Shown here piece by piece: positions 14,376 through 58,699 of a stretch of 64,000 bases of DNA. The notes under the pieces are model-generated. The model had not been told where the DNA came from and searched no databases. It saw nothing but the letters and a program-made list of their open reading frames with translations. Position 1 is the stretch's first letter, and every line of letters begins with the position of its first letter. Made by a program: the position numbers and the translations under genes. The DNA comes from Cenococcum geophilum 1.58 (Eukaryota; Ascomycota; Dothideomycetes; Gloniales; Gloniaceae). The stretch spans positions 496,001 to 560,000 of the forward strand of contig KV748208.1 in the NCBI GenBank assembly GCA_001692895.1, in the 5' to 3' direction.

Positions 14376-14524
14376 AAGCCTTATAGGAAATACTACAGTA
14401 GACTTATTAATAGGCTAGGTATATAGATAACAATAGTTAATAAGCTTGATGGTAAAGTAAGTACCTAATAGATTAGCTCTAGTTATATTCTAAGATTTAC
14501 TATAAAGAAAGAACTATCTAGGTA
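14376..14524 (-). repeat. Gypsy LTR, inner part (interrupted by the 2.3-kb TIR element)
   Basis: The reverse complement matches the last ~150 bp of the LTRs at 19641-20063 and 27115-27537, including CCTAGATAGTTC, the TCTTAGAATATAA-ACTAGAG segment and the CTAAGGCTTTGTTA-like end. It continues beyond the inserted element at 16852. Confidence 0.82.
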
Positions 14525-14567
14525 CATTAGGAAATTTTTTTTTGGGCACGTTGTCGCAAGCGAAAAT

Positions 14568-14745
14568 CGGGGTCTGCAAAACCTGCGTAAGTCGCAATTT
14601 TGGCAATTTGCGGCAATTTGCAGCAATTTACTATAAATACACAAGTAGCCTGTGCAAATTGCTGTAAATACGCAAGTAGCCTGTGCAAGTTACTGCAAAT
14701 TGCTAAAATTGCTAAAATCGCGACTTAAGCAGACCCTAATTTTTG
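14568..14745. repeat. Subterminal inverted repeat in the 2.3-kb TIR element
   Basis: Segments containing GGGGTCTGC and AAGTCGCAATTTT (14570-14610) recur inverted at about 14705-14745 (AAAATCGCGACTTAAGCAGACCC). Between them are repeats of GCAATTTGC and GTAAATACGCAAGTAGCCTG. Subterminal repeats like these often bind transposase; that role is inference. Confidence 0.7.
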
Positions 14746-14755
14746 GCTGCAATAA

Positions 14756-15700
14756 AAATACCACAAAGCTCCGCACAAAGCTCTACTAAGGCTCTGCACG
14801 AAGCTCTGCACAAAGCTCTACATAAAGCTCTACACAAAGCTCTACACAAAGCTCTACACGAAGCTCTACACGAAGCTCTACACAAAGCTCTACACAAAGC
14901 TCTACACGAAGCTCTACACGAAGCTCTACACGAAGCTCTACACCGAAGCTCTACACGAAGCTCTATACAAAGCTCTACACGAAGCTCTACACGAAGCTCT
15001 ACACAAAGCTCTACACGAAGCTTTGCACGAGGCTCTACACGAGGCTCTACACGAAGGTCTGCGTACAGAGGCTCTACACGAGGCTCTACACGAAGCTCTG
15101 TACGAAGCTCTACACAAAGCTCTGCACGAAGCTCTACACAAAGCCCTGCACGAAGCTCTACACAAAGCTTTACGCGAGGCTTTACACAAGGCTCTATATA
15201 AAGCTCTGCGTACAGAGGCTCTATGCGAGGCTCTGTACGAAGCTCTGCACAAAGCTCTACACGAAGCTCTACACAAAGCTCTACACGAAGCTCTACACGA
15301 AGCTCTACACAAAGCTCTACACGAAGCTTTGCACAAGGCTCTACACAAGGCTCTACACAAAGGTCTACGTATAGAGGCTCTGCACGAGGCTCTACACAAA
15401 GCTCTATACAAAGCTCTACACGAAGCTCTGCACGAAGCTCTATATAAAGCCTGCACGAAGCTCTACACAAAGCTTTGCGCGAGGCTTTACACAAGGCTCT
15501 ATATAAAGGTCTGCGTACAGAGGCTCTATACGAGGCTCTATACGAAGCTCTGCATGAAGCTCTACACAAAGCTTTGCACGAGGCTCTACATAAGGCTCTA
15601 TACGAAGCTCTATATAGGGCTCTACACAAAGCTCTACGTATAGAAGCTCTACATAAGGCTTTACGCAAAGCTTTACGTACGGAGGCTCTACACAAAGCTC
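14756..15700. repeat. 12-bp minisatellite AAGCTCTACACA/G, copy 1, ~78 units
   Basis: Units read AAGCTCTACACG, AAGCTCTACACA and variants, with a phase-changing insert (GTCTGCGTACAGAGG or a RIP variant) near 15056, 15203, 15361, 15508 and 15632, which gives a higher-order period of about 150 bp. Because 12 is divisible by three, long open frames appear in several frames on both strands; I treat them as by-products. Confidence 0.95.
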
Positions 15701-16120
15701 TGTATTGGGTCCCCGCTATATTCCCAATAGCCTCTACATATGCCTCTACTAAGATACCCCTTATATACACCTAAATAGCTACCTTATTTTCTACCCTTCC
15801 TTATATCCTCCCTACCTAGGGAGACACTAGAACAACAGCTAGTAGACAACTATCACCAGAACCAGACGACCACCGTTTAAACGACTATCTAGCAAACGCT
15901 ATAAACGATTTAATTAACCGATCGATTAAATTAAACTAGAGCTTTAATATCGGCCCGTTGCCAAATTAAATTAAGGCCTCCTAGGTAGGCACCTTAGACG
16001 ACTACTGTTCGAATATATAGCTAGCGAACGGCCGTAGAGAACAATTTAAATTAATACAATTAATCGATTAATTAAATTAGGCGGAGCCTTCGATCGGGCC
16101 AACCTTTCCCCTAAATTATA

Positions 16121-16420
16121 GATAGGTAGATATAGACGGTAGTATAAACAGGAGGCACAGACAGTAGGCACAGACGGTAGGTATAAATAGGTAGGCATAG
16201 ACAGGTAGTATAGACAGGTAGGTACAGATAGGTAGGCATAGATAGTAGGTATAGACAGGTAGGCATAGATAGTAGGCATAGGTAGGTAGGTATAGGTAGG
16301 TATAGATAGATAGATAGATAGACAGACAGATAGACAGATAGGTAGGTAGGTAGATAGGTAGANAGGNAGATAGATAGANAGATAGATAGGTAGGNAGGCA
16401 GGNAGGNAGGCACTAGGCCT
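16121..16420. repeat. TAGG/TAGA/TATAGACAG microsatellite with ambiguous bases
   Basis: Runs of GGTAGGTATAGATAG and TAGATAGATAGACAGACAG type. Scattered single Ns fall at 16363-16433. Confidence 0.9.
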
Positions 16421-16851
16421 AGTTAGGAAATCNGTATATAGCNAGCAGATCGTTAGGAATACCGCCAATTAATAATTTAGAGCCTTTGTAAAGAGTATCC
16501 CCCTTATCTTAATTACTTAATAAATAGCTCTACATTTTATATAGTTATATAGAAATATAAAATATACAAAATATAAAATGTATAAAATATGCAAAATATG
16601 CAAAATATATAAAATATATAAAATATACAAAATGTGTAAAATATATAGGCTCTACACGTTTGCTGCGAGTTGCTATAAAATGCGTAGGCTCTATGCAGTT
16701 TGCTATAAGTTGCTATAAAATACGTAGGCTCTATGCAGTTTGCCGCAAAATGCGTAAACCGCACAAGACTATATACAACTGCCGCGACTGTACAGTTTGC
16801 CGCAAATTGCCGCAAACTGCAACAACGAGCCCGAAAAAAAATTTCCTAATG

Positions 16852-17095
16852 TAGGGACTGTGGTCCTTTAAATATATAACCGAACTATAAGGGATCTTTT
16901 ATCCCTTACTTAGGCTTATAACCCTTCCCTACTTATTAGTTTATCTCTCTCTATATATAGATATTACTATACTTTTTACTATATCGTCCTCTTCTATTAA
17001 CTCTTCTATAACTTATACTTAGCTTATTTACTCCTTACCGTATACCTAAGCAATATACCTTATACTACCTCCTAAGAAATATACTAAGTATATCA
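16852..17095 (-). repeat. Gypsy LTR, outer part (after the TIR element)
   Basis: The first bases (TAGGGACTGTGGTCCTTTAAATATATAACC) continue the LTR interrupted at 14524. The matching order in the intact LTR is GGTTATGTATTTAAAGGAC followed by TAATCCCTACCTAGATAG, read on the opposite strand. Beyond about 16890 the sequence diverges from the intact LTRs, so the outer edge is only estimated from LTR length. Confidence 0.5.
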
Positions 17096-17356
17096 GTACG
17101 TTAGTATATTGGTATGCCGCGTATTTCTATATTTCCTCGTTCCTATACTCCAAGTTATATATCTTTAATTTATTATATAACTTGGCTACCCCTTATCCTA
17201 TAGTTTAACCAGTTTTACCGCCTCTTGCACTATCGCTACTAACTCGTTTATATCTTCCCTAACTAGTCGTACTACTGCTAATATAAGGTTCGTAATAGGC
17301 TTAATACTCCTAGCGCCGTTATAGGTAGTATCTTATTATTCTGTCTACTGTAACTA
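17096..17356 (-). other. Start of internal region of another Gypsy copy, truncated
   Basis: It follows (on the minus strand) the LTR at 17357-17820. The sequence just inside that LTR resembles the post-LTR segment of the full-length copies. A short coding-like minus frame is present but too decayed to name. It seems to be cut by the neighbouring LTR. Confidence 0.35.
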
Positions 17357-17820
17357 TAATAGTAAATATATAATAAAGCCTTATAGGAAATACTACGGTG
17401 GATATATTAATAGGCTAGGTATATAGATAGAAGTAAAATAATAAGCTTTAACTAGTAGAGTATATATCTAATAGATTTACTCTAATTATATTCTAAGATT
17501 TACTATAAAGAGAGAACTATCTAAGTAAGGACTATAGTCCTTTAAATATATAACCGTACTCCTAAGAAATCCCTTTATATATAATATAGGTAAGGTATAT
17601 AAAGTATATAAAGTATATAAGTAGAGCTCGTAGATCTTATATATAATGGTATTATTACGTATTACCTAGATAGGGGGCTAAGTTAGGGGTTCAGCTAAGG
17701 ACTTGGCGCTATATATATAAATATATCCTTTTTTTCTACCTTCTTCTACTCCTTAGCTTAAAATTCAAGTTAATAGACTACTAATTGTATAGGCTTGCAC
17801 TCGTTATATTATAGTACTAG
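17357..17820 (-). repeat. Gypsy LTR, inner part (other half at 31033-31184)
   Basis: The reverse complement contains GGAGTACGGTTATATATTTA, a TACTTAGATAGTTC segment and the AAGGCTTTATTA end also seen in the LTR of the full-length Gypsy. It stops at 17820, where a 250-bp LTR begins, and continues at 31033 on the far side. The reunited LTR is about 600 bp, longer than the 423-bp LTR of the intact copies. Confidence 0.72.
17816..17820. repeat. 5-bp TSD (ACTAG), left copy
   Basis: ACTAG before the 17821 LTR; identical ACTAG at 31028-31032 after the second LTR. Confidence 0.9.
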
Positions 17821-18070
17821 TGTTACGGAAGTGGGCACGAGCTAGAATACAATGTACTAAACAGGGTAGTAATTAAAGAAGGCTACGTACGCGTAACTAT
17901 GCGTAGTTGATACAAAGACATTTAGATAAAGAAGAAGAGTCTTTATATGCTAGGTACGGGTATAAATAGGAGTTGTAGGGGAACGTACGTAGGTGTTTTA
18001 GGACGAATGTAAGTATAGGTTAAGAACGTTAAAACGCGTAGAGACGTGAGAACGTGTAAGTCCCGTAATA
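17821..18070. repeat. LTR, 250 bp (left)
   Basis: Matches 30778-31027 base for base apart from transitions. Contains the AAGAAGGCTACGTACGCGTA segment in both copies. Confidence 0.92.
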
Positions 18071-18479
18071 GTACCCCCCCCTTACTTCCGAGCTCCTGCG
18101 AGGCGTGTTATATTATATATATAGAAAAAAAAACCCTAATTAAGGGGAAAACTTTTTTGTTAGCCCTTCTCTGCCTTTCTACGTCCTCCGCTATATAGGT
18201 TCCTCTAGTTTAATCCTTCTATATTTAATTATTAGGCTATTAACTTATTAGGCCTAAAGTATAGCCTAGCTTCTATTACCAGCTATACTCCTATCCTCGC
18301 CACTTAGAGACGCATTGCTAAAGCTTATATAGTCCCTTTCTTACTTCTAGCAGCTCTACGGTCTTCCTTTATATATCTATATATAGTCCCTCCTCACTAG
18401 GTCTTATCTCGAGGCCAGTAGGGCCCCCCCTCTGTAGGGGGTATATCGTGTAGCGTATATAGGGGTAGGTAGGTAGGAA
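18071..18479. other. Non-coding interior of the non-autonomous LTR element
   Basis: Starts with a C-run (GTACCCCCCCC) directly after the LTR, then an A-run and pyrimidine-rich stretches. No open frame or homology recognised. Confidence 0.6.
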
Positions 18480-18685
18480 AAATAGATATCGGATTATAGT
18501 GCGGTATAGTATAGTATTTATAATAAGGTATCTTCTTAGTAGGTTCTTATTAATGCGGTGTAGTATTTGTATTATAGGCAGGTTCTTATTAGTGGTAGTA
18601 TAGTGCTAGCGTAGGTTCCGTAGGCATATCGGCACGGGATCTTATTAGATTTAGGTAGCAGTACGGTGCTAGCAACGTGTTTAGG
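18480..18685. repeat. ~68-bp minisatellite, left part (split by hAT)
   Basis: Contains GTAGGCATATCGGCACGGG, GGTAGCAGTACGGTGCTAGC and GGTTCTTATTA units that match the array at 29819-30500. Confidence 0.78.
18678..18685. repeat. 8-bp TSD of second hAT, left copy
   Basis: TGTTTAGG here versus TGTTCGGG at 29819-29826. The two differences (T/C, A/G) are the RIP-type transitions. Confidence 0.82.
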
Positions 18686-18949
18686 CAGTGTGTCCAACAG
18701 TTAGCTAGCTGCGAGCTTTAGCTTTTATAGCTGACTAACTGCGTCAATTAGACCGCTCGCTGTCAGCTAACTGTAAGGTAAGGTACGCTGACTGTTACGC
18801 TATTAGCTAGCTGTCCCAATTAGGAAATTGATATAGACTTTATGGTGTTTTATTGCGGATTTTTAGTAGTACCTCTTTATGTACAAATATTGACGTTACC
18901 CGATTAAATCCAACCCTAATTTACCTAATATAGTATTTAAATATAGCTA

Positions 18950-19640
18950 AATTCGTCCTGCGCACCCATAGAGGGCTAAAAAGGTAGAACGTTTGGTAGT
19001 GACGTTAGTGGTAAGGTTAAAAAGAAGGCATTGGTAAGGGCTCCGGAGGCTCTATTTCTATATTAGATTTAATTAAATATAGAGCTCTGTTAAATGTATC
19101 TTACTAAGCTAGCTTTTCTGCCTTTGTAGTTGGCTTATAGCCAGTAAGATTAATATCTAAGCTCGTTAACCAAGGTGTAGTTAAACCTCTATTAGAGTTA
19201 ATATAGTTAATTAAACTGCTTAATAAAAGGCCTTTAATTAACTACCATTTTTAATATTAATCTGCTTTAATTATGTCGGCCAATAGTTAATTACGCTTAT
19301 TAGTAATAATCCTTTTAGCTTAGCTAAAGGCTTATTTATATGTAGAGCTTATCGCTAGTATAAAGAACAGATTAAGGGCAATCTTAGCAAGTGTTAGATA
19401 AAGGATTTAATCGATTTTAAGCCACTAGTTAAGAGAATTAGGAATAACATTGTTCTACTTATTACCGTTATTAAAGCGGATCTTAATAAGCTTAAGGCCT
19501 GCGTTATAGTAGCGGTTAAGCTTACTAGTAAGCTTAATACGCTTTTAATTACGCTTTAAGGAAGTAAGGCTCTTATCTACGACTAAGGACTGTATATATT
19601 TATTAGCTAAATTATTATTAGATTTATAAAGAACCTTCCT
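18950..19640 (-). pseudogene. hAT transposase, C-terminal part with hATC domain
   Basis: The minus-strand frame continues from 27543. The hATC dimerisation domain is clear at about 19400-19210: a W near the start, then ILYLTLAKIALNLFFILAIS, then KRAFS/KRIITNKRN-like residues matching the hAT pattern of Leu-Ala-x2-Ala-x2-Leu-x-Ile-x-Ala...Arg-x-Phe-Ser. Stops are mainly TAA/TAG at Gln positions. Followed by a hydrophilic tail to about 18960. Confidence 0.85.
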
Positions 19641-20063
19641 TATTACAGACGCTTTAAGTACGATGTTGTGACTACTTGGGGAAGAGTCGGACGAAGCTAG
19701 TTGGTTGATTTAGGCACGGTTTAGAATAGAGCCGATAGAACTATGTGACGAGGAATAGTAACTAAGGTCATATAATGTTGTACGTAGTATACGTAGTGTA
19801 TAAGGGGAACGTACGTATAATACGTATAACACGTATATTACGTATAAGAAGGATTTTATAGGAGTATGGTTATGTATTTAAAGGACTATAATCCCTACCT
19901 AGATAGTTCCTTCCTTATAGTAATTCTTAAAATATAATTAGAGTTAATCTATTAGGCAACTACTCCACCAGTTATTATTACGTTATTAACTTTAACTTGC
20001 TTTACCTATATACCTAGCCTAATAATAAGCCTACCGTAGTTCCTACTATAAGGTTCCGTTACA
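19641..20063 (+). repeat. 5' LTR of Gypsy A (423 bp)
   Basis: Same length as the 3' LTR at 27115-27537; differences are transitions. Contains repeated ACGTATAA-type segments near 19815-19860. Confidence 0.92.
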
Positions 20064-20106
20064 TAATTACTACCTAGTTATAGTAATAAGTACAGAAAGT
20101 TAAATA

Positions 20107-21190
20107 ACATGCTACTAAAAGCAGCCACTATAACGCTATTAACGGCAGCAACTACTTTAAGGTTAGGTAACACCAGTATAGTAGATACTAATTTATAGCA
20201 ACCTGTAACAGTTGGATAATTATAAAAGGTAATTAACTAGTTAATAACAAACAATGCAGCGCTAGAAGAAAGGGTTAATAGGATAGAAGCAGCGAGGGTT
20301 AAGCTACCATTAATTAAAAGATTCTTAGGAGAAAGATTAAAGCTTAAAGAATTCCTTATATAAATGTACTTTAAAGTTATATAAGAAGGGGTAAAGCTAC
20401 TAATACCTATAGATCGAATAGCCTATATAGGACTATTCCTATTAGGAAGAGTACTTAAGTAATTTAAGCCTTACTTTACGGAGATATAGGCAAATAGGAT
20501 AACGACCACCAATTAAGACGTGCGATTTATGTTCTTAAGCTAGGAAGGTTTTATAAAGCGACTTATATAAATATTTAAAGACCTAGAGGCAGTAACCACG
20601 GTAAAAAGAAAACTCTAAAATATTACGTAATAAACCTTAGCAATTAAGTATATAATATAGTTCTAGACGTTAGCGATATAAGTAGAGTGGAATAATAAGG
20701 CGCTTATAGTACAGTATAAATAGGGACTTAAGGCTAAAGTCTAGGACGTGATTATCCTAATAGAAGAGGCGGATACCCTAAGGGATTTAATAAATTAAGC
20801 GATTAAGATTAATAATTAGATCTACTAAAGGGAATAGGCTAAGAGAGGTTAGGATAGAGTTCTATAGTTATATAAGGTATAGAGTACGTATTAACTAAAG
20901 CTAAGTTAAAAATTATAGTATAGCGTAGAGCTAATAGACCTAAGTAGTACTAGAGAAGCCTATAAGAGATAAAGTAAGAAACTATAAAAACCTAAAGGTT
21001 AAGGATCTAGTAATTATAGGACTAAGGAGTAGAGGCTAAACTAGGGATCTTAGTAGTAGAAGACGTTTAGGCGGACTCTATAGTAAAGTTAATAGTTTAA
21101 AGACGGAGTTTATATAAATTACGGGAAATAAGGTTATTTCGCGAGGGATTATAAAGATAGTTAGAGTAACTATATAATAAAGGGAATAAG
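20107..21190 (+). pseudogene. Gypsy A gag with zinc knuckle
   Basis: After the LTR and a presumed primer-binding zone, the frame shows a gag capsid region. A KRFLGERLKLKEFLIQ-like start near 20325 (stops read as Gln) is followed by IDRIAYIGLFLLGR near 20410-20460 and a QEGFIKRLIQIFKD-like segment near 20540. A decayed CCHC knuckle (YGK, then GYFARDYKDS, Cys to Tyr) lies at about 21110-21160. It would form the nucleocapsid. Stops are TAA/TAG in place of Gln. Near-identical copies occur in Gypsy B and in the minus-strand fragment at 11658-14375. Confidence 0.85.
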
Positions 21191-23100
21191 ACTAATAGTA
21201 GAAGATATATATATATAAAGGGATAATAGTGTGCTATAAGGAACAAAAGAATATTTAATTAGAAATTTTGCGTTTTGTTATAATAATATATACCAAATTT
21301 ATAAAGACGCTAAGTATGGCGTAAGCTATTAGCTATAGGAGCTAAAATTTATAAAGTATAGAGGAACTAATAAACTAGTTCGCAGATCGGATATTAAGGA
21401 TAATAAATTTAATAAAGGCGAAACATTTTATAATAATAAGGCGATAAAGGTAGCTTATTAGGAGTATATAGACTTTAAAGATATTATAATAGAGGTAGAA
21501 GATAATTCCACTATAGAATAGGGAATATTAGTAGGGATTAAGACCCCGCTAAATACGATGTCTATTACTTTGCAAGACGTAAGAGAAGTAGAATAGTAAA
21601 CTACTTTAGTACTTAATAAAGGCAAGAAGCTAAAGGTTTAAGATTTTTATAGTAAGATAAAAGACAACTAAGATTTTTAAGATAAGATAAGGTAGACCTA
21701 AGGACCCACAATGGATAGAAACCGATGGAGTAGGGTAATAGCTTAGTTTAAGGATATATAAATAAGCTTGGGATAGAGTTTCCTATAGGCATAAGACTCT
21801 TAAGACGAGATAAAAACACCTAATAAGCCTAGTTAGACTAAGGTAGGAGCTAAGCTTAAGTTAAAAGCAAGCTTAGGATTAAGAATCCTATAAAACTAAG
21901 ATTTCAAGACATAAATAAGGACTATTAACTAGATTAGAGAATCTGCAGTATAAATAGCAATTAGACTAAGAGATAGATATATAGACCTAGAGGACTTACT
22001 AGGGGAATATAGTGTTCAGCCTAAAGATTAAAAAGTTAATACTAAGATTAAGAAGTAAGAAGACTTTAAGGATCTACTTATAAGACGTAAAAGGAAAGAA
22101 ACTATAGAGGAATTTAGAGTAAGAATTACCTTATAGCAAAAACAGAAAGTAGATAAGAGATCTAGCATATTAGGATATATAAGGGACAAAGCACCTATAT
22201 AAAGAATTACTAATAGGCCTAGAATAGGTATACTAAGAGCTAAGTGGCTTACCGAACTAAAACAAGAAGAGGATTTAGGGATTCTAACTAGGTTCAAAGA
22301 ACGATATATAAAGGGCTATTATAATATAGTAATAAGAAGATACTTCCTTACGGATAAGCTATATATACTCTAGTAGCTATACTAAAAGTAGTATAGGTAA
22401 AGGTATAATGATAAGTAGGAAGACCTTTATATATAGTTGGACGAGAAAGTTATTTAAGACTACCCTATTATAGAAAAAGCGATAAGTTATATTAAGGGAG
22501 CCTTAATTATAATATTAAAAAATCTAGAGGAGCGTTTAGAGGACTAGAGAAGTAAAAGACGTATCTTAGTACCTGCGAATAAAGTTATAATATTTAAATT
22601 AATATAGCAGAGGTTTAAACTTAAGGATAAAGACAAACTAAAAGTTAACCTAAAGTACTAAGCATATTATATATTAGCATGGATTATATATATAGATAAT
22701 ATATATAATATACATAAAGCACTAAAGGATAAGTATTAAAAATATCCTATAAGAATGTATTAGATAACTAAGGAATAGAAATACTAAAACGCTAAGTATA
22801 TATATAGCTAGTATCTAGTAGAAGTTTAGGAGTTAGAAAACTTAATACTTTAGCCAGAAAGATTCCTTACGGAAGAATACCTAAATGGATAATAGTGGTG
22901 GGAATGCCTAGAGAATATATATCTATAGTATATTAAAGATAAAAAGCAAACTAAGTATTGGCTAAAAGTAGACTAAGTATAGATAGGATTAAGTAGCTAA
23001 TAGTTAGGAAAAGTAGAGGCCCACGGGACCAGAGGGAGCTAGTAGTAGAGCCTTAAACCCTTAAAGAAATTTAAGGACAATACCTAAATTTATAAGTTAA
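21191..23100 (+). pseudogene. Gypsy A long coding linker between zinc knuckle and protease
   Basis: About 1.9 kb of frame continues between gag and protease, far longer than usual for Gypsy elements. It includes an AFCYNNIYQIYKDAKYG segment (about 21270-21320, possibly a second metal-binding patch), an acidic/Gln-rich stretch (21480-21850), and a Lys/Arg/Tyr-rich segment (22050-22900) with RYIKGYYNIVIRRYFL. The function is not recognised. The same linker is present in Gypsy B (about 56700-58690) and in the minus-strand fragment, so it is a family trait and not an accident of one copy. Confidence 0.6.
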
Positions 23101-23119
23101 ATGGCAAGATTAACAGTTC

Positions 23120-26100
23120 GAAGTATTAATAGATAGTGGAGTAATAAGGAACTATATCTTACTAGTAGCAGTTAAAAGAATGGGGTTACTATATAGAAAA
23201 AAGGAGCACCCTTACCTATTAGTGATAATTTTAGGAGATCTAATAGCCTATAGAGGAGGCATTATTAATCTTAAAATAGGACCTATTTAGCTAACTATTA
23301 AAGGAAAATAGATTAAGATGTCTTTTAATATATTACTATTAGGGAATAATAAGGCAGTACTAGAAATGCCTTAGTTATAGGAATACAATCTAAAGATTAA
23401 TTAGGTTATAGGTTAGGTTAATATTAGAGATACTTAACGCTATAAGATGCGATAATAAGCTAAGTTGGTATAGTACTAAGTAGGGGCGACCTATAAAGAA
23501 ATAGAAAAAGGACTAAGTTACGTACCAAAAAGATACTATAAGTATGGTAAGAAACTATAGTTACTAGAAAGTAAAAAGCTATTAGAGTATATAGCGTGGG
23601 ACTATAAGATAGAATTAGAACTAAAAATAAGTCTAAAGTTTTTTCCAATCTATAAGCTTACTAAAGAAGAAGGTAGAGCACTAAAAGAGTTTATCTAAGA
23701 AAACTTATAAAAGGGATATATTAGACCATTATAGTTATTAGCGGGTTATCCAGTACTATTCGTACTAAAGAAGAATAGCAAACTACGGCTGTGTATTGAC
23801 TATAGATAGTTAAACAGCATTATTAGGAAGGATAGGTATCCTTTACCCTTAATTAGCGAAATCTAAGATAGGATAGGCAATACGTAAATCTTTATAAAGA
23901 TAGATCTAAAATAGGCGTACTATTAGATTAGAATTAAGGAAGGTAATAAATAGAAAGTAGCCTTTAGGTTAAAGGAAGGACTATATAAACTATTAGTTAT
24001 ACAATTCGGGCTTATAAACGTACTAGCAACGTTCTAAAAGCGTATTAATAATATATTAGGAGAATACTTAGATAAATTTATTATAGTATACCTTAACGAT
24101 ATTATTATCTACTTAATAACTAAGGAAGAACATAGGGAATATGTTAAATGGGTTTTAAGGAAACTACAAGAAGAACAGATGCTAGTAGTAATTAAGAAAT
24201 ACGAGTTCTTTACTAGGAAGACTAATTTTATTAGATTTATTATTAAACTAGGCCAACTTAGTATAGATTTAAAGAAGATTAAGGCTATAGTAAATTAGTA
24301 AGAACCAGAGAACGTTATATAGTTAAGATTATTCCTAGGGTTTTATAATTACTACAAAAGGTTTATAGCGCAATAGTTAAAAGATATTAAGCTATTTACG
24401 CGATTAACAAAGAAGGAAGAACTATGGGTATAGGGAGAGGAATAGTAAGAACTTTTTAAGAAAGTTAAGGAGTTGTTTACCTAGGAGCCAGTTCTTAAAA
24501 TCTATTAATTAGGATTAGAGACGGTTGTAAAAATAGATATATTAGACTATATACTAGGGGCGTACTTTATATAGAAATATTAAGACAAATAGCACCTAGT
24601 AGCATACTATAGTCGGAAGATAATACTACTAGAGTTAAACTATGACATCTATAATAAGGAGTTATTAGGTATAGTTATAGTATTAAAGAAATAAAAAGTA
24701 TTCTTATAAGGTATAAAGAAACTATTTATAGTTAAGACGGATTATAAGAACCTAATAGGATTCCTAATAATAAAGGAACTTAACTAAAGATAGGTTAGAT
24801 AGGTAGAGATACTTATAGAGTACTATTTTAAGATTTAGTATACTAAGGGTACAGATAATACATAAGTAGACGCTCTAAGTTAAAAAGCTAAACTATAAAG
24901 TAACGAGAAGCTATTAGGGGCTTTACTGCGAAAAGATATAGACGGATTAATTAGGTACAATTATCTAAAGATTATAGTAACTTAGGAAAATAAGGAACTA
25001 GAAAGAGTCTATAAAACACTAGAGAGCTTTTAAGTATAAAGAATTCTAGAAGTATAGCTAAAAGATTTATAGACGGATATATATAAGAATTAAGAAGTTA
25101 AGTATATCCTAAGAAGTATAGCAGAGTATTTTATAGAAGATTTCTATAAGGGAATAACTTAGGGATATAATAGAGCCACGGGCTTAGTGTTAAGACTCTA
25201 AGAGGAGTATATTATTAATGGAATCTAGGGACTAGTATAGAAAGTTATAAAGGAATGTTTAGATTGCTAAAGGAATAAACTAATAAGGTATAAGCTATAT
25301 AGAGGGCTATAACCTATTAAAACACTAGAGAGACTATAGAAGGTTATATTATAGGACTTTATTATTAAGTTATTAAAGTTAAGAGACCCTATTACCGGAC
25401 AAAATTATAACGTAATCTTAGTAATAGTAGATAAGCTTATAAAGTAGGGATACTTTATAGCATATATAGAAGAGATATTAGTAGAAAATATTGCTAAAAT
25501 CTATATTAAAGAAGTATTTATAAAACACGGAGTATTAAGCAAGATTATATCGGATAGAGATCTAAGATTTATAGTAGTATTCTAGGAGGTATTCTTAACG
25601 GAATAAGGAGTTAGAGTAGTAACTTCTACCGTATATTATCTGCAGATAGATAGTTAAACGGAAAGATTAAATTAGATACTAGAGCAGTATCTAAGGTACT
25701 ATATTAATTATGCGCAGAATAATTGGGTATTATTACTATTAGTTATATAGTTTATATATAATATAACACCTTAAGAAGGAATAGGTATATTACTATTTAA
25801 GGTAAATTACGGATATAAGCTAAGAATATCGTTATTACTATAATAAGCGAAGAAGATAAGTAGTATAGCTAAAGAAAGAATAAAGATATTAATAAATCTT
25901 TATATAGACCTTATAGAATTAGTAAAGAAAGTATAAGAGAGAATAAAAAAGTACTATAATGCTAAGAGATCTAAGGGACTAGATCTTAAGAAGGGAGATA
26001 AAGTATAGCTACTATANAAAANTTTTAANAGTTAANNACTAAGTAAGAAGTTAGACTANNTTANACTAGGACCTTTTAAAATTANNTAAANGNTTTTACN

Positions 26101-26460
26101 NNTTATATTTAAGTTAGACCTACTAGCTAAAATAAAGATCTACCCTATATAGTATATTGTAATACTAGAGCTAGTATATAGGAATATTAAGCCACTAGTT
26201 TATAAAGTAGACATATATAGAGGACAGGAAAAAGATAAATAGTAAGTTTTAAAGATCGTTAGTTATAAGGACGTTAATAATAAAATATAGTACGAGGTTA
26301 AGTAGATAGGCTATACTAAGACTACCTAGGAACCACTAAAGAATTTAAAGAACGCCATAGGAAAGGTATAGGAGTATTAGAAGAAATTAGGTTAGGCAGT
26401 ATTAATAAAAAAGGATCGCTAAAGAATAAGTTACCTAAGAGGGACCTAAGAAGAGCAGTT
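23120..26460 (+). pseudogene. Gypsy A pol: protease, RT, RNase H, integrase, chromodomain
   Basis: Domains in order: retropepsin with LIDSG at about 23125-23140; RT with LCIDYRQLN at about 23790 and YLNDIIIY (from YLDD, Asp to Asn) at 24085-24111; RNase H around TDYKNLIGFL near 24740; integrase zinc-binding Cys pair ECLDCQRNK near 25251; integrase core Asp at DFIIK (25350), Asp at ISDRDLRF (25550) and Glu at TERLNQ (25655); chromodomain near 26248-26385 ending GYTKTTQEPLKNL. It would copy the element RNA to DNA and insert it, the chromodomain guiding it to marked chromatin. It is non-functional: many stops and catalytic-site changes. Confidence 0.92.
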
Positions 26461-27114
26461 ACTAAACCACTTAGATCTATTTCCTTCTCTGTTAGAAGAG
26501 AATCCGTTTTTTTATTACTAAGTTCCTATAAACCTTATTTTATAAGTTTCTACTCTTTAAAACGCACCTTTTTATAAACCTTCTTAAGACGAAGTAACTA
26601 AGTAGACGCCGTAATACGGGCTTTAAGAGCCTTCTGCTCTACGTTATAAGAATATTCCAGCTTAGTAAGGGCTTAAGATAGTTTACTATTTAGCCGCGTA
26701 GCAGTAGATTAAATATAAAACCCTAAGATAAATTAATTAGGGAACTAGACGACTATTAAGAGTAATAGGTCGCGTATATTTAGTATTAAAGACGAAGCGA
26801 ACGTTATAGGACAAATAAATATTTACTTTAGTGCACTCTAAATAAGAGGACAGTTATTGTAAAAATGGGTTTGCTAACGTAATATAAACTAACCCCTCTT
26901 TTAAATAATAAGAACACGGAGATAGTATAATCTTACTAAGAGATAATATCGCAGCAATAGTATAAGCACGACGTTGCGCTTATAAAGAAGAAATTGCTTT
27001 AGGTATAATAAGTAATAATATTAACCAAATTAATTAGACGGATATTACACCTCTAGTAAATAACTTAGAGATATTTAGAATCTTTAAGGATAAAGATAAA
27101 AAGGAGGGAGATAG
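26461..27114 (+). other. Gypsy A post-chromodomain tail
   Basis: About 650 bp between chromodomain and 3' LTR, also present in Gypsy B. One frame stays readable if TAA/TAG are taken as former Gln (for example RGQLL, RRNCFRYNK near 26980), so it may have been coding. It ends in a purine-rich tract. No domain recognised. Confidence 0.5.
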
Positions 27115-27537
27115 TGTTATAGACGCTTTAAGTGCAATATTATAATTACTTAAGGAAGAGTTAAACGAAGCTAGTTAGTTAATTTAGGTATAGTCTAGGA
27201 TAGAGCCGATAGAACTATATAACGAGGAATAGTAATTAAGGTTATATAATATTATACGCAGTGTATATAGTATATAAGGGGAATATATGTATAACACGTA
27301 TAACACGTATATTATATATAAGAAGGATTTTATAGAAGTACGGTTATGTATTTAAAGGACCATAATCCCTACCTAGATAGTTCCTTCCTTATAGTAATTC
27401 TTAGAATATAATTAGAGTTAATCTATTAGGCAACTACTCCACTAGTTATTATTACGTTATTAACTTTAACTTACTTTACCTATACACTTAGCCCAATAAT
27501 AAGCCTACCGTAGTTCCTGCTATAAGGTTCTGTTACA
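27115..27537 (+). repeat. 3' LTR of Gypsy A (423 bp)
   Basis: Matches 19641-20063 with transition differences. Starts TGTTATAGACGC and ends TCTGTTACA. Confidence 0.92.
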
Positions 27538-27542
27538 TTTCT

Positions 27543-29350
27543 ATATTATAGCTTAGCTAGTTTCTTATTTTCCTTATCTACTTACTTATTAATATAGTTA
27601 TTAAATAAAGTCTCTATGCACCGCTTGGCGTGCTTCTACTATAAGGGCTACCGTTTCTACTTATTGCGAAAGTAGGCGCGTTTAAGAGACGGATAAAGGA
27701 TTACTGCGGCAAAATAGTAAGGGCTCTCGGCCTTTATTTTATTAAAATATTTATTAATCTTTTAGATAGCTATATTAACGCCTAATTTAAGAAAGGAGTT
27801 GTATTTGTTCTTAAGGCTCTACTAAGTTCGCTAGAGGATTTAATAGAGTAGCTCTATATTAGTAATCGACTCCTATAGAGCGCTATATAAGCCTTTAATA
27901 CTAGGACTGTTAGCGTCGCCTTTTATACACTTAGTGGCTAATATAAAAGGCTTTAGGATCTTAATAAGCTACTCTACTTACTGCTAATCTTTATTAGTAA
28001 GCGCGTCCTATAATAGATCGTAGCTATTATTAGCGGGATTCCTCTAAGCTAGTAGATATTTATTAATTGCTTTATAAAGAAGGTAGGCACGGCGGAGTAT
28101 AAAGTAGGTTAAATTCCACTAAAAGTCTCCGTCCTTAATAAATAGAAGCTCTACTTAATTAAAGAGCTCGTCCTTAACGTAGGCCTTAGCTTAGTTCTTA
28201 GCAAAGTCCTTACGGCGTCTTATTAATCGCATAATATATTTAACAATATTATAAACCTTGCCTATGGAGCCTCTCTACTACATAAGGTTAAATTTAACGT
28301 GCTTGCTCGTGCTAATTATTAAGCGTTTAAGCTTGCTTACGCCTTTGCCGTATATTAAAGCCTTAATAATAAGGTTAATAATATAGCCAACGCACTAAAG
28401 CCGTTCCTTTTTAGCCACTAATAGGCTTTATAAGAGGTATTCGTAGAGCTTATTATTATTACTGGCGTTATTAGCCATTAAGAAGCCAAGCTTATAATTA
28501 AATCAATACTTTTAAATTACTGACGCTAGGGCCGTTGCTATATTTTTAGTAGAGTGTAATCCTCGTAGTCGTAAAAGGCCTAAAAGTACTAATTAAAGCT
28601 TTTTACCTTTGTTAATGAAATGGGCCACTATACTAAGTAGTAATATTCTATTTATAGATATCTAGATATTATAGGTAAGATTAATTTTACTAAGTACAGT
28701 AAGGAGGAGGTCTTTAATATTAATGCGTTACTATTTAAATGCAGTTTTAATTTAATTGCTTAGTAATATAGGTGCTTTTATAAGACAGTTCTAAATCTAA
28801 AGACGGTTAAAGGTTAGTAGGGCGCACGTATAAGGACTTATAGCTTAATAAAAGGTAATATCTTATAGAATTATCTAATTAACATAGGCTTAAATATAGC
28901 CAGCTGCCCAAAATGGCTGGCGTTTATAACTACTAGCGGAAGTAAAAGCTTCTGTGCTTAGTAGTTATATTCTACCACTATAACTTTTAAGGTTAATAAT
29001 AAGGTTATACTTTAACTTTAAATGGCCGTTAATATAATTATTACCGTTAATTATAAATAAAGCACCTAGTCTCTAAGCTAAATAGCAAAGCTTATATAGC
29101 TAGTGCCTCTTTTTACCTAAAGGACCGTCCTAAAAAAGGTCTGCTTTATGCTTCCATATTAGTAATATAGGAGCTTTACTTAATAGCAACCGCTTATTAA
29201 TAACCCGGTATCTATATTTGCTAGTAAGCTTACTATATATTATTAGGTAGAGATTATCCTAATTAATAGGAAAGATACAGCCATAGTTCCAATTTATTAA
29301 AGGAGGCTCTTATAATACGGAATCTTAGTTACCTAATTTAGGATCATCGT
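27543..29350 (-). pseudogene. hAT transposase, N-terminal and catalytic part
   Basis: The minus-strand frame from about 29300 reads WKHKADLF, then DGPLGKKRHQLYKLCY near 29095-29150, a BED-type/zinc-finger-like N-terminus of the kind usual in fungal hATs. After that comes the transposase core: LGFLMANNASNNNKLYEYL near 28430-28490 (the Asp-to-Asn position of the second catalytic residue), KHVKFNLM and YNIVKYIMRLIRRR near 28200-28300, then LIKILKPFILATKCIKGD near 27930. The frame reaches 27543, where Gypsy A interrupts it. Stops are Gln-type. The enzyme would have acted on the CAGTGTGTCC ends. Confidence 0.87.
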
Positions 29351-29376
29351 TAATTAAAAGGGGGGAGGAAAAAGTT

Positions 29377-29430
29377 AATTCACAAACCCTACGCGGTGCT
29401 AAAGTTAAATAACGCGTAGATTGTGAATTA
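29377..29430. repeat. Inverted repeat (hairpin) near right end of second hAT
   Basis: TTAATTCACAAACCCTACGCG pairs with CGCGTAGATTGTGAATTA around a short loop. It lies upstream of the transposase start, so a regulatory role is possible but unproven. Confidence 0.7.
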
Positions 29431-29818
29431 AATAAGGAAGAAGTAGAGGAGGAAGTAGACGAAGAAGCTCTACTGCCTAGCTAACGCGTGAAATGCAATG
29501 TACGTTACATTTTATGTGGGTAATAAAATGGTAAGCTTTAGCACGGGTTTCGGCGCGCAATGGAGATATTAGGGAAAATGCTTTATTTATTATGGCTAAG
29601 CGAGAGATTCCCATGGGTTTCCTATTGCTTGGCGTATAATTAACCAACCAGATTATCTAAATATCCTCAACTTCTACCAAAAGCTTTAACTTACTACTAA
29701 ATATTACCGCTAAGACAGCGAGCTGTCAGCTAGCTGCAGTCTTATAGCTGACTGACTGCTTACATTAGCAGCCTCTTGGCAGCGAAGCTGACAGCGTCGC
29801 TGACTCTTGGACACACTG

Positions 29819-30500
29819 TGTTCGGGTTCCGTAGGCGAATTGGCACGGAGCTTATTAATTCATACGGTAGCAGTACGGTGCCAGTAACAGGTTATCTCGT
29901 AGGTATATCGGCACAAGGCTTGTCGGTTTATGCGGTAGCAGTATAATGCTAGCGACGGGGTCGTCTCGTATGCATATCGGCATAAGGCTTGTCGGTTCGG
30001 GCAGTAGTACGATACAAGCGATAGGGTCGTAGGCGTATTGGCACGATGGGTTATTGGGGTCGTTTTGTAGGCGTATCGGCGCGAGGTCTTATTGGTTTAT
30101 GCGGTAGCAGTACAATGCTAGCGACGTGTTCGTATATCTACGGAGCGAAGCTCTACCTAGCCGTGTTTGGGTTGTAGGCTTATTGGCACGATAGGTTATT
30201 GGGGTCGTTTCGCAGGCATATTGGCGCGAGGTCTTATTGGTACGTAGGGTAGTACGTGCAGGTTGGTAGGACAGTAGTAAGATACTAGCTTCTGTGTTCG
30301 TGTTCGTGTTTATATAGCAGTAGGATGCCAGCCAGGTCAAACCAAAGGGCAGTAACGTGCCTATTCGTAATTAGTAGTAGTAGAATACAAGCCATCGAGG
30401 TCGCAGGCGTATTGGCGCGATATCTTGTCGGCAGGTCATAATTCCACAGGCGTATCAGCGTGGTGTCTTGTCATCAGGTCCGTATGCAAATCGGCGCAAA
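29819..30500. repeat. ~68-bp minisatellite, right part (starts with hAT TSD)
   Basis: Units marked by GTAGGCGAATTGGCACGG and variants at about 29831, 29899, 29968, 30029 and 30067 and onward, alternating with GCGGTAGCAGTACAATGCTAGCGAC. Same array as 18480-18685. Confidence 0.85.
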
Positions 30501-30603
30501 GACTTATCGTACTAGTTTAGAACCCTAGCGTCCTAGTCTACCCGCAGCTAGCAGCTCCTATATCTACCCCGTAGGCATAGAAAGGTATACTCCGCGACTA
30601 GTA

Positions 30604-30745
30604 GCCTATCCCTTCGCACGTTGGTTTGCGTCCTACGGTATCGATAAGGGCCTAGCCAATAAGAGGCGCGCATTGGGCGCCCGTGTGTACAGCTGGGCCT
30701 AGGCTTGGCGCCAAGTGTAGGACTCCAACGTGCGAAGGGATAGGC
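30604..30745. repeat. Short perfect inverted repeat, 142 bp, not RIP-mutated
   Basis: GCCTATCCCTTCGCACGTTGG at 30604 is matched exactly by its inverse at 30725-30745, and a further GTCCTAC block pairs inside. The loop contains GCGCGCATTGGGCGCCCG. It is rich in CpA/TpG, unlike everything around. It could be a small MITE; no clear TSD seen. Confidence 0.75.
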
Positions 30746-30777
30746 CCGCTAAGTATAGAAAAGGGATCTAAATGTAG

Positions 30778-31027
30778 TGTTACGGAAGTAGGCATAAGCT
30801 GGAATATAATATACTAAACGGGGTAGTAATTAAAGAAGGCTACGTACGCGTAACTATGCGTGGTTAATATAAAGACATTTAGATAAAGAAGAAGAGTCTT
30901 CGCGTACTAGGTACGGGTATAAATAGGGGTTGTAGGGAAACGTGCGTAGGTGTTTTGGAACAAACGTGAGCACGGGTTAAGAACGTCAAAACGAGCAGAG
31001 ACGTAAGAACGTGTAAGTCCCGTGACA
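30778..31027. repeat. LTR, 250 bp (right)
   Basis: Matches 17821-18070; ends CCCGTGACA and is followed by ACTAG (31028-31032). Confidence 0.92.
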
Positions 31028-31032
31028 ACTAG

Positions 31033-31184
31033 AGTCTTAATTAATTAAGTCGGCGTAATATTATAGAGCTTATAGAGTTTATTATATAACCTTGCCTACT
31101 ACTCGTTATATAGTTCTACTAGCTTTATTATAGCCTATACTACATCCCGTAGCCCATCTAGTTCACTAATAAGTATCCGTAACA
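31033..31184 (-). repeat. Gypsy LTR, outer part (other half at 17357-17820)
   Basis: On the minus strand it starts TGTTACGGATAC at 31184 and includes GCTAGTAGAACTATATAACG, similar to the start of the 423-bp LTRs. It ends at the ACTAG duplication. Confidence 0.7.
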
Positions 31185-31628
31185 CTTCTACATCAGGAAA
31201 TTTTTTTTCGGGCTCGTTGTTGCAGTTTGCGGCAATTTGCGGCAAACTATACGGTCGCGGCAGTCGTATATAGTCTTGTGCGGTTTGCGCATTTTGCGGC
31301 AAACTACACAGAGCCTACGTATTTTACAGCAACTTGTAGTAAACTGCACAGAGCCTACGTATTTTATAGCAACTCGCAGCAAACGCGCAGAGCCTGTGTA
31401 TTTTACACGTTTTATATATTTTATATATTTTATATATTTTGCATATTTTGCATATTTTATACATTTTATATTTTGCATATTTTATATTCCTATATAACTA
31501 TATAAAATGTAAAGCTATTTATTAAGCAATTAAAATAAGGGGGATACTCTTTATAAAGGCTCTAAATTATTAATTGGCGGTATTCCTGACAATCTGCTAG
31601 CTATATACCGATTTCCTAACTAGGCCTA

Positions 31629-31925
31629 GTGCCTGCCTGCCTACTTACCTACCTATCTATCTATCTGTTTATTTACCTATCTACCTATCTACCTACTTAC
31701 CTATCTATCTATCTGTCTGTCTATTTATCTATCTATCTATACCTACCTATACCTATCTACTTATACCTACTGTCTATACCTACCTATCTATGCCTACTGT
31801 CTGTGCCTACCTATCTATACCTACCTATCTATGCTACCTGTCTATGCCTACCTATCTATATCTACCGTTTATACCTACCGTCTATACCTCCTATCTGTAC
31901 TACCGTCTATGCCTACCTATCTATA
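31629..31925. repeat. CTAC/CTAT microsatellite in copy 2
   Basis: Runs of CTACCTATCTATCTATCTG and TATACCTACC type; the inverse of the microsatellite at 16121-16420. Open frames here (poly Tyr-Leu-Ser) are by-products. Confidence 0.9.
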
Positions 31926-32335
31926 ATTTAGGGGAAAGGTCGGCCCAATTAAAGGCTCCGCCTGATTTAATTAATTAATTGATTATATTAATTCGAATCG
32001 TTCTCTACGGCCGTTCGCTGGCTATATATTCGAACAGTAGTTGTCTAGGGTGCCTACCTAGAAGGCCTTAATTCGATTTAGCGACGGGCCAATATTAAAG
32101 CTCTAGTTCAATTCAATCGATCGGTTAATTAAATCGTTCGTAGCGTTCGCTAGATAGTTATTTAAACAGTAGTCGTCTGGTTCTAGCAACGGTTGTCTGC
32201 TAGCTATTATTCTAGTATCTCCCTAAATAGGAAGGATATAAGAAAGGGTAGAAAATAAGGTAGCTACCTAGGTATATATAAGGGGTATCTTAGCAGAGGC
32301 ATATATAGAGGCTATTAGGAATATAGCGGGGACCC

Positions 32336-33320
32336 GATATAGAGCTTCGTATAAAGCCTCCGTACGCAGAGCTTCGCGCAAAGCCTCGTGCAGAGCCTCT
32401 ATATATAGAGCTTTATATAGAGCCCTATATAGAGCTTTATATAGAGCCTTATATAGAGCCTTATATAAAGCTTCGTATAGAGCTTTATATAAAGCTTCGT
32501 ATAGAGCTTTATATAAAGCTTTATACAGAGCCTTATATAGAGCCTCTATACGCAGACCTTTATATAGAGCCTTATATAAAGCCTCGTATAAAGCTTTATA
32601 TAGAGCTTCGTGTAGGCTTTATATAAAGCTTTATACAAAGCTTCGTATAGAGCTTTATACAAAGCTTCGTATAGAGCCTTATGCAGAGCCTCTATACACA
32701 GACCTTTATATAGAGCCTCGTGTAGAGCCTCGTGCAAAGCTTTATATAGAGCTTTATATAGAGCTTCATATAGAGCTTTATATAGAGCTTTGTATAGAGC
32801 TTCGTATAAAGCTTTATACAGAGCTTCGTACAGAGCCTCGCATAGAGCCTCTATACGCAGAGCTTTATATAGAGCCTTATATAAAGCCTCGCGCAAAGCT
32901 TTATATAGAGCTTCGTGCAGGGCTTTATATAGAGCTTCGTGCAGAGCTTTATATAGAGCTTCGTATAGAGCTTTATATAGAGCCTTATACAGAGCCTCTA
33001 TACACAGACCTTTATATAGAGCCTCGTATAGAGCCTCATACAAAGCTTCGTATAGAGCTTTATATAGAGCTTCGTGTAGAGCTTCGTATAAAGCTTCGTA
33101 TAGAGCTTCGTATAGAGCTTCATATAGAGCTTTATATAGAGCTTCGTATAGAGCTTCGTATAGAGCTTTATATAGAGCTTTGTATAGAGCTTTATATAGA
33201 GCTTCGTATAAAGCTTTATATAGAGCTTTATATAGAGCTTCGTATAGAGCTTTATATAGAGCTTTATATAAAGCTTCGTACAGAGCTTCGTGCAGAGCCT
33301 TAGTAGAGCTTTATGCGGAG
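32336..33320. repeat. 12-bp minisatellite, copy 2 (AGAGCTTCGTAT / AGAGCTTTATAT)
   Basis: About 80 units of AGAGCTTTATAT and AGAGCTTCGTAT, the inverse of the copy-1 unit after CA-to-TA mutation. TATACGCAGAGC-type interruptions keep the higher-order spacing seen in copy 1. Confidence 0.95.
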
Positions 33321-33566
33321 CTTTATAGTATTTTTATTACAGCCAAAAATTAGGGTCTGCTTAAGTCGCAATTTTAGCAATTTTAGCAATTTGCAGCAAC
33401 TTACACAGGCTACTTACGTATTTGCAGCAATTTGCACAGGCTACTTGCGTATTTATAGTAAATTGCTACAAATTGCCGCAAATTGCCAAAATTGCGACTT
33501 ACGCAGGTTTTGCAGACCCCGATTTTCGCTTACGACAACGTGCCCAAAAAAAAATTTCCTGATATA

Positions 33567-35892: not shown

Positions 35893-36080
35893 CTTTGCAG
35901 CTATACAAGGCTCTACACAAAGCCCTACGTAGGAAGGCCTCTATAATTACAATTACAAAACTCTACAAAGCCTTCCTACGTAGAGCTTTCCTGCGCAAAG
36001 CTTTCCTACGCAGAGCTTCCTGCAAAGCTTCGTGCAGAGCTTTATGTAGAGATTTGTGCAGAGCTTTGTGCGGAGATTTA
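35893..36080. repeat. Small 12-bp-type minisatellite related to the TIR elements
   Basis: Units such as GGCTCTACACAA, AGCCTTCCTACGTAG, AGAGCTTTCCTACGC and AAAGCTTCGTGC, partly as a palindrome around 35940-35960. It shares the AAGCTCTACACA/AGAGCTTTGTG motif of the arrays at 14756-15700 and 32336-33320, but no TIRs of that element were found nearby. Confidence 0.75.
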
Positions 36081-55594: not shown

Positions 55595-55639
55595 TAATTA
55601 CTACCTAGTTATAGTATTAATATAAGAAGTTAAATAATA

Positions 55640-58690: not shown

Positions 58691-58699
58691 AGTTAATTG

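What the first reader, a model, noticed from the sequence alone, without database searches (positions are those of the whole stretch)
14525..33564. An unusual minisatellite-carrying TIR element in two inverted copies
Copies at 14525-16851 and 31191-33564 share TA-flanked inverted ends (CATCAGGAAATTTTTTTT...), subterminal AATTTGC repeats, a ~1-kb array of a 12-bp unit and a tetranucleotide-type microsatellite, and no gene. A TIR element whose bulk is a 12-bp minisatellite does not fit the usual MITE pattern and I know of no named family like it. It spreads minisatellites and microsatellites around the genome as cargo.
Basis: partly seen in the sequence, partly recalled or inferred. Interest (0 to 1): 0.75.

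Follow-up and report, generated by a model that had tools for sequence, protein, structure and literature searches.

The report
Fungal transposon family carrying minisatellite arrays
Two copies of a gene-less jumping element in a fungal genome turn out to belong to a family of probably hundreds, every examined member of which carries its own block of short tandem repeats, and the family was probably moved by a little-known fungal transposase type (Plavaka) whose genes found here all look damaged.

Summary
The copies at 14525-16851 (+) and 31191-33564 (-) are real, with a TA duplication each and unrelated flanks. They belong to a large family: 330 end matches against 1 in the control, 355 left-end matches against 0. 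I delimited 46 elements: 42 of 46 have a matching 2-bp flank (33 TA, 9 other), and 19 of 46 have a related empty site. All 46 carry the 12-bp array (132-1566 bp) and a TAGG-type microsatellite; 25 of 46 carry a further 20/27-bp array. So it is a non-autonomous DNA transposon that carries minisatellites. It is not strictly TA-specific, which fits Tc1/mariner poorly. Its termini (CATCA..TGATG) and 2-bp duplications match those published for PlavakaB. Here 7 of 58 variant ends lie within 13 kb of a Plavaka match, all 7 oriented around it (0.9 expected); no whole Plavaka element could be read. All 123 scored Plavaka rows (of 266 candidates) contain stops. Copies differ mainly by RIP-type transitions (c1-c2: 252 transitions, 0 transversions). 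TIR elements with internal tandem arrays are known (BrickBuilt, Tetris), so this is a new variant of a known kind. A function for the array is untested.

The parts
14523..14524 (.). TA target-site duplication, left of copy 1
   Evidence: related empty sites keep a single TA
14525..14558 (+). left terminal inverted repeat of copy 1 (CATTAGGAAATTTTTTTTTGGGCACGTTG...)
14559..14730 (+). left subterminal region with GCAATTTGC-type and 31-bp repeats
14731..15740 (+). 12-bp minisatellite array of copy 1 (TRF 14762-15701, 76.9 copies)
15790..16110 (+). middle segment, found again elsewhere in the genome (45 match rows, best 40 of 1358 candidates scored); in other subfamilies a motif here is expanded to a 20/27-bp array
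16118..16393 (+). 13/14-bp and TAGG/TAGA microsatellite
16546..16743 (+). AT-rich 9/27-bp repeat and right subterminal 40-bp repeats; the latter hold 3 copies of the array's 10-bp core
16818..16851 (-). right terminal inverted repeat of copy 1
16852..16853 (.). TA target-site duplication, right of copy 1
31189..31190 (.). TA target-site duplication beside the right end of copy 2 (copy 2 is inverted)
31191..31224 (+). right terminal inverted repeat of copy 2
31649..31925 (-). microsatellite of copy 2
32302..33358 (-). 12-bp minisatellite array of copy 2, collinear with that of copy 1 apart from gaps of 12, 11 and 24 bp
33531..33564 (-). left terminal inverted repeat of copy 2
33565..33566 (.). 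TA target-site duplication beside the left end of copy 2

Best explanation
This is a non-autonomous DNA transposon family of a large-genome Dothideomycete (probably Cenococcum geophilum or a near relative). Its members are 1.5-3.2 kb, have an imperfect inverted repeat of about 34 bp beginning CATCAGGAAATTTTTTTT, carry no transposase as far as examined, and make 2-bp target-site duplications with a strong preference for TA. SHOWN: separate insertions with related empty sites, several hundred end matches, tandem arrays in every one of 46 copies, and copy-to-copy differences dominated by transitions, in CpA/CpG where tested. INFERRED: the element was moved in trans by a Plavaka-type (PlavakaB) transposase, because termini and duplication length fit the published PlavakaB description and Plavaka genes here lie beside, and oriented inside, ends of a closely similar kind. 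INFERRED: the arrays were seeded by short motifs inside the element and grew and shrank by slippage or unequal exchange, so each transposition plants a ready-made, changeable minisatellite plus microsatellite at a new site. INFERRED: RIP later mutated the copies and the transposase genes, so the family is probably immobile or nearly so now.
For: Ends: 330 matches vs 1 in the reversed-pattern control; 355 left-end matches vs 0. Duplication: 42 of 46 match over 2 bp, 33 TA and 9 other; 3-bp agreement in 1 of 46; of 29 elements also found by queries without TA, 26 match, 20 TA and 6 other. TA is 16.3% of dinucleotides in the window. Empty sites: 19 of 46 have a gap-free related site in held sequence, among them L039 with the non-TA target GT (AC on the other strand). 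Arrays: 46 of 46, 46 of 46 and 25 of 46 for the three array types. RIP: c1-c2 252 transitions, 0 transversions; changed sites CpA 144 of 259, CpG 74 of 213, CpT 24 of 419, CpC 9 of 154. Array change between close copies: L030-L035 ends differ at 1 of 447 sites, yet arrays differ by blocks of 49, 40, 36 and 30 bp; L044-L048 57 transitions, 1 transversion, blocks of 583, 57, 53, 50 and 49 bp. Plavaka: published PlavakaB termini 5'-CATCA..TGATG-3' and 2-3-bp duplications (PMC12730594, passages); CATCA in 36 of 46 left and 35 of 46 right ends. 7 of 58 variant ends lie within 13 kb of a Plavaka match, all 7 with the gene inside and the end downstream of it, five of them at 6.1-6.6 kb; expected 0.9. 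The 282-bp C3 end held (in L045) aligns with the right ends of all 46 elements, past its base 60 in 45 of 46 and past base 120 in 16 of 46; 36 of 46 left ends match it too, but over the TIR only, 34 bp or less.
Against: The C3 end used for the alignment is 9.7 kb from its gene and could belong to another non-autonomous copy. The end class next to Plavaka (GGGCTGGTTG) differs by one base from the common class (GGGCTCGTTG) and was singled out after looking. None of the 100 listed ends lies within 13 kb of Plavaka (1.6 expected); the one end that does (C53; 0.9 expected) pairs with a left end that puts the gene outside an ordinary element. 4 of 46 elements lack a matching 2-bp flank. Not all pairs are transition-only: L030-L035 show 39 transitions and 14 transversions, L043-L052 62 and 28, L048-L053 52 and 39, over whole alignments that include hard-to-align arrays. 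The 46 elements are those I could fetch, not a random sample.
Confidence: 0.76

Rival explanations
1. A Tc1/mariner (pogo/Fot1 or Tc1-like) MITE-like family: TA duplications, moved by one of the many DDE_1 or DDE_3 transposases of this genome.
For: 33 of 42 matched duplications are TA, and the genome holds many DDE_1 and DDE_3 matches, some without stops.
Against: 9 of 42 matched duplications are other dinucleotides, one with an empty site (L039). Matches within 7 kb of 205 known ends are at chance: DDE_1 1 vs 2.4 expected (149 of the 150 listed entered), DDE_3 2 vs 2.4 (150). Only the best 150 of 713 and 150 of 406 candidates were scored, so a partner could be missed.
Confidence: 0.09
2. A PIF/Harbinger-ISL2EU group element with 2-bp duplications.
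For: Relatives of Harbinger can make 0-, 2- or 3-bp duplications, and a TA-duplicating lineage (PHISTA) is described (PMC12730594, passages); the genome has 66 DDE_Tnp_4 matches.
Against: ISL2EU duplications are given as AT, and PIF/Harbinger TIRs as usually beginning with A or G (PMC4482050, passages); here TA or other, and C. 1 near pair vs 1.1 expected.
Confidence: 0.04
3. Segmental duplication or spread by recombination rather than transposition.
For: c1 and c2 are 14 kb apart, inverted, and have the least gap length of the 105 pairs compared.
Against: Flanks are unrelated, each copy has its own TA pair, and c1 has related empty sites.
Confidence: 0.02
4. The array is not passive cargo but a cis-acting part of the transposon (transposase binding, spacing or enhancement).
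For: Present in 46 of 46 copies, always on the left side. A 10-bp core of the unit recurs 94 times in the right-hand 300 bp, all on the array's strand, 0.1 expected; the copies share descent, so these are not independent.
Against: The right-hand core is in 30 of 46 elements and in none of the other 16, which carry the array too. Array length varies tenfold (132-1566 bp); L046 has only 10 core matches. The core is absent from the 282-bp C3 end.
Confidence: 0.14

Closest known systems
PlavakaB transposons (CMCT clade; PMC12730594, passages)
   Same: Termini 5'-CATCA..TGATG-3' and 2-bp duplications; Plavaka (PF18759) matches in this genome lie beside ends of a closely similar kind
   Different: No transposase inside; bulk is tandem arrays; an ascomycete host, whereas the Plavaka families in the passages seen were reconstructed from Agaricomycotina (the abstract also names Pezizomycetes for a gene type that Plavaka can carry)
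BrickBuilt MITE of Porphyromonas gingivalis (PMC4596501, abstract and passages)
   Same: Element with inverted ends and no transposase remnant whose body is a minisatellite (23-nt unit, 1 to 22.8 copies), several copies per genome
   Different: Bacterial, 19 copies in one strain, duplications that vary in length (3 of 4 copies checked)
Tetris, foldback-like element of Drosophila virilis (PMC4079207, abstract)
   Same: Non-autonomous TIR element with internal tandem repeats, which fed longer arrays
   Different: Repeats of about 220 bp inside the TIRs; here a 12-bp array on one side only and a TIR of about 34 bp
MITEs with hitchhiking (GTCY)n microsatellites in insects, and minisatellite propagation by transposable elements in rice (both seen only as references and a table row in PMC6947457)
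   Same: Transposon carrying a micro- or minisatellite to new sites
   Different: Other hosts, other elements; the papers themselves were not seen

Membership tests
Plavaka, PlavakaB lineage (as non-autonomous derivative) | Termini 5'-CATCA..TGATG-3' | tested here: met
   CATCA in 36 of 46 left and 35 of 46 right ends, both in 29 of 46; the others read CATTA, TATCA, TATTA, CGTCA, CACCA or CGTTA
Plavaka, PlavakaB lineage (as non-autonomous derivative) | 2- or 3-bp target-site duplication | tested here: met
   42 of 46 match at 2 bp; 3-bp agreement in 1 of 46
Plavaka, PlavakaB lineage (as non-autonomous derivative) | Autonomous partner with Plavaka transposase bounded by the same ends | tested here: inconclusive
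   7 of 58 variant ends near Plavaka matches, all oriented around the gene, 0.9 expected; the C3 end aligns past the TIR with 45 of 46 right ends; no complete element could be read
Plavaka, PlavakaB lineage (as full member) | Encodes the transposase | tested here: not met
   No gene in c1 or c2; the other 44 elements were not scanned for genes one by one; at most a non-autonomous derivative
MITE | Length of about 50-1000 bp (as given in PMC4596501, passage) | tested here: not met
   1501-3226 bp, median 2366 in 44 elements, the 2 with nested inserts left out; TIR, duplication and copy number fit
Tc1/mariner | TA duplication (strictness recalled, from no call) | tested here: not met
   9 of 42 matched duplications are not TA
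CACTA/EnSpm | 5'-CAC..GTG-3' termini with 3-bp duplications (PMC12730594, passage) and Transposase_21 (PF02992; link recalled) | tested here: not met
   Termini CATCA, duplication 2 bp; PF02992 found nothing, but its control genomes did not ring either
Foldback element | Long TIRs built of tandem repeats (as for Tetris) | tested here: not met
   TIR about 34 bp; 12-bp array on the left side only

The most novel reading that the evidence does not exclude
The 12-bp array is a working, constitutive part of the transposon: a tandem platform of transposase-binding or spacing sites just inside one end, akin to the subterminal repeats of CACTA-type elements (recalled) but grown to minisatellite scale. 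These elements would then be selected to carry minisatellites, and a lineage of Plavaka derivatives would act as minisatellite generators.
Probability: 0.13. Interest if true: 0.75.

Novelty: new variant of a known kind. Interest (0 to 1): 0.5.

Why it matters
Where a genome's minisatellites come from is usually argued from a few loci. Here probably hundreds of copies, planted by transposition at independent sites, start from related arrays, and many differ mainly by RIP-type transitions, so array growth and shrinkage can be measured copy by copy with transversions as a rough clock (c1-c2: three array indels and no transversion; L044-L048: several hundred bp for one transversion). It would also add a non-autonomous branch to Plavaka, in an ascomycete, and a case of a family probably orphaned when RIP damaged its transposase genes.

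Tried and rejected
Segmental duplication of the two copies: rejected (unrelated flanks, separate duplications). Long copies as autonomous elements: L025 and L026 (8.2 and 7.2 kb) hold inserts with direct repeats near their ends, probably degraded LTR-type elements, not classified further; the 7.5-kb C6 pair is two ordinary copies in the same orientation 1.9 kb apart. Ends followed by a G-free stretch: 0 matches, 5 in the control. Partner transposases: PF13359, PF03184 and PF13358 at chance near known ends; PF02992 no match. C53 common-class end beside Plavaka: first taken as a link, then dropped. A first version of the C3 alignment printed only the best 60 rows and seemed to show no left-end match; the full list has 36 of 46 left ends, over the TIR only. 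Long ORFs in the arrays: period-12 products, not treated as genes. Array as RIP decoy: in c1-c2 the array differs at 13.5% of sites and the middle at 12.2%, so no protection or special targeting is seen; left and right ends differ less (5.1% and 6.2-6.7%). In print: the listings (titles, start of abstracts) showed no minisatellite-bearing Plavaka element and no such family in Cenococcum; only open-licence papers are held, and the supplement of PMC5023957, where its tandem repeats are listed, was not seen. Rows not used for the 46: loci L001-L024 (3 kb each, some with a whole element) were not delimited; L032 and L037 match the middle segment but show no recognisable ends; single unpaired ends in L036 and L045 were left out.
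Full report
WHAT IS THERE. Copy 1 is 2327 bp at 14525-16851; copy 2 is 2374 bp at 31191-33564 on the other strand. Each has, from left to right: a TIR of about 34 bp; subterminal GCAATTTGC-type repeats; a 12-bp array of about 76 units; a middle segment; a 13/14-bp and TAGG-type microsatellite; an AT-rich repeat; 40-bp subterminal repeats; and the other TIR. There is no gene: the long ORFs are reading frames of the array.

COPIES. The window lies in an unnamed 177-Mb genome. A 31-base end pattern with up to 2 mismatches has 162 forward and 168 reverse matches, the control 1. A variant-end pattern adds 58 (control 0), and a left-subterminal pattern with up to 3 mismatches has 355 matches (control 0). 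Some subfamilies hold an inverted second copy of part of the left end, so matches and elements are not one to one; probably a few hundred elements exist. I delimited 46 from the fetched loci, the two window copies among them: the first batch was clusters in contig order on C1-C4, later ones mainly pairs of ends less than 4 kb apart. Loci L001-L024, L032, L037 and two unpaired ends were not used.

INSERTION. 42 of 46 have the same dinucleotide on both sides: 33 TA, and AG (2), CA, GT, CC, TC, TT, AA and GA. The four that do not match are L026, L028, L033 and L062. Because the pattern contained TA, I counted apart 29 elements also found by DNA queries without it: 26 match, 20 TA and 6 other. For 19 of 46, the two flanks joined with one dinucleotide find a related, uninterrupted site in the sequence held, with no gap within 8 bp of the junction; such sites are by nature in repeated sequence. 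At six of the 19 (L036, L049, L053, L054, L057, L058) the longest such relative reads CG, CA, AA, CA, TG or CG where the element has TA, so part of the TA excess may be later CpA/CpG change or plain divergence. TA makes up 16.3% of dinucleotides in the window.

DIVERGENCE IS LARGELY RIP-TYPE. c1 and c2 align end to end with 252 transitions, 0 transversions and three gaps of 24, 12 and 11 bp (another scoring gave 251 and 1). The gaps lie in the 12-bp array. The changed cytosines are in CpA (144 of 259) and CpG (74 of 213), far less in CpT (24 of 419) and CpC (9 of 154). Over the 105 pairs of 15 elements there are 17997 transitions and 987 transversions, array alignment errors included; some pairs have tens of transversions. 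In 17 aligned right ends and 9 middle segments, 80% and 83% of differences from the consensus are C-to-T or G-to-A; in the left ends only 23%, because two subfamilies are mixed there. c1 and c2 have the least gap length of all 105 pairs, which suggests that one came from the other, or both from one donor, by a local jump; this is inference. Divergence of c1-c2 is lower at the ends (5-7%) than in the array, middle and microsatellite (12-13.5%).

ARRAYS. All 46 elements carry the 12-bp array (at least 8 core matches; 132-1566 bp, median 864) and the microsatellite; 25 of 46 also carry a 20/27-bp array (at least 5 core matches). The motif of that second array, GACGACCGTCGCCAGA, is present about once or twice in the middle segment of c1-type copies. 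Close copies already differ in array length (L030-L035, L044-L048). The 10-bp core of the 12-bp unit also occurs 2-5 times in the right-hand 300 bp of 30 of 46 elements, on the array's strand, and in none of the other 16.

WHO MOVED IT. The published description of PlavakaB, termini 5'-CATCA..TGATG-3' with 2- or 3-bp duplications (PMC12730594, passages), fits. A search for the Plavaka domain (PF18759) gave 123 scored rows out of 266 candidates, which I entered as 110 loci; every row has stops inside, in frames read without regard to introns. Of 58 variant ends 7 lie within 13 kb of one, all with the gene inside and the end downstream of it; uniform placement predicts 0.9, and 0.24 with that orientation. 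All 6 ends that read GGGCTGGTTG or TAGGCTGGTTG are among the 7; the class was noticed after the fact. Of 100 listed ends none is near (1.6 expected), and the one (C53) pairs with a left end that leaves the gene outside. One of the 7 ends (C3) was partly in hand: its 282 bp align with the right ends of all 46 elements, up to 189 bp, past base 60 in 45 and past base 120 in 16; left ends (36 of 46) match only over the TIR. DDE_1, DDE_3 and DDE_Tnp_4 matches were at chance near ends.

HOST. A protein encoded at 34073-34948 has its best named relatives in Lepidopterella palustris (67%) and Lophium mytilinum (60%); the best hit of all is an unnamed environmental protein (94%). Cenococcum geophilum, placed in the same order as Lepidopterella, has a published 178-Mb genome with 81% repeats (PMC5023957, passages). 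The identification is likely but not proven; no row shown (120 of 149) names Cenococcum.

VERDICT. A real, large, non-autonomous transposon family of probable Plavaka type, in which every examined copy carries tandem arrays that make up much of its length. Inverted-repeat elements with internal tandem arrays are known in bacteria and insects, so the kind is not new; the combination with Plavaka, several arrays per element and a RIP clock did not appear in the searches named in Tried and rejected.

Noticed in passing
window 8128-8510: Another tandem array (15-bp unit with an AGCTT core; TRF); I saw none of this family's ends around it.
   Followed up: no
window 35962-36080: Short array of 12/15-bp units resembling the family's unit (7 core matches on the minus strand), outside the two copies; perhaps a relic.
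   Followed up: partly
window about 20000-26500 and 55500-62000: Two copies of a long repeat with purine skew, about 35.5 kb apart; relatives of it elsewhere hold family members, which gave several empty sites.
   Followed up: partly
window 34073-34948: A 291-aa protein gene between the repeats, with relatives in many Dothideomycetes and a 94% identical environmental protein.
   Followed up: partly
L025 and L026: Family members split by inserts of about 4.4-5.4 kb with direct repeats near their ends, probably degraded LTR retrotransposons.
   Followed up: partly
L055: Two family members in the same orientation, 1.9 kb apart.
   Followed up: yes
window 16363-16443: Scattered N letters in and beside the microsatellite of copy 1, so its exact sequence in the assembly is uncertain.
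   Followed up: no
G000 contigs: All 123 scored Plavaka rows carry in-frame stops, mostly TAG and TAA, whereas several DDE_1 and DDE_3 rows have none.
   Followed up: no
C53:959877-962413 and 962878: A pair of family ends (an ordinary element by its ends, not read) about 0.5 kb before a Plavaka match.
   Followed up: partly
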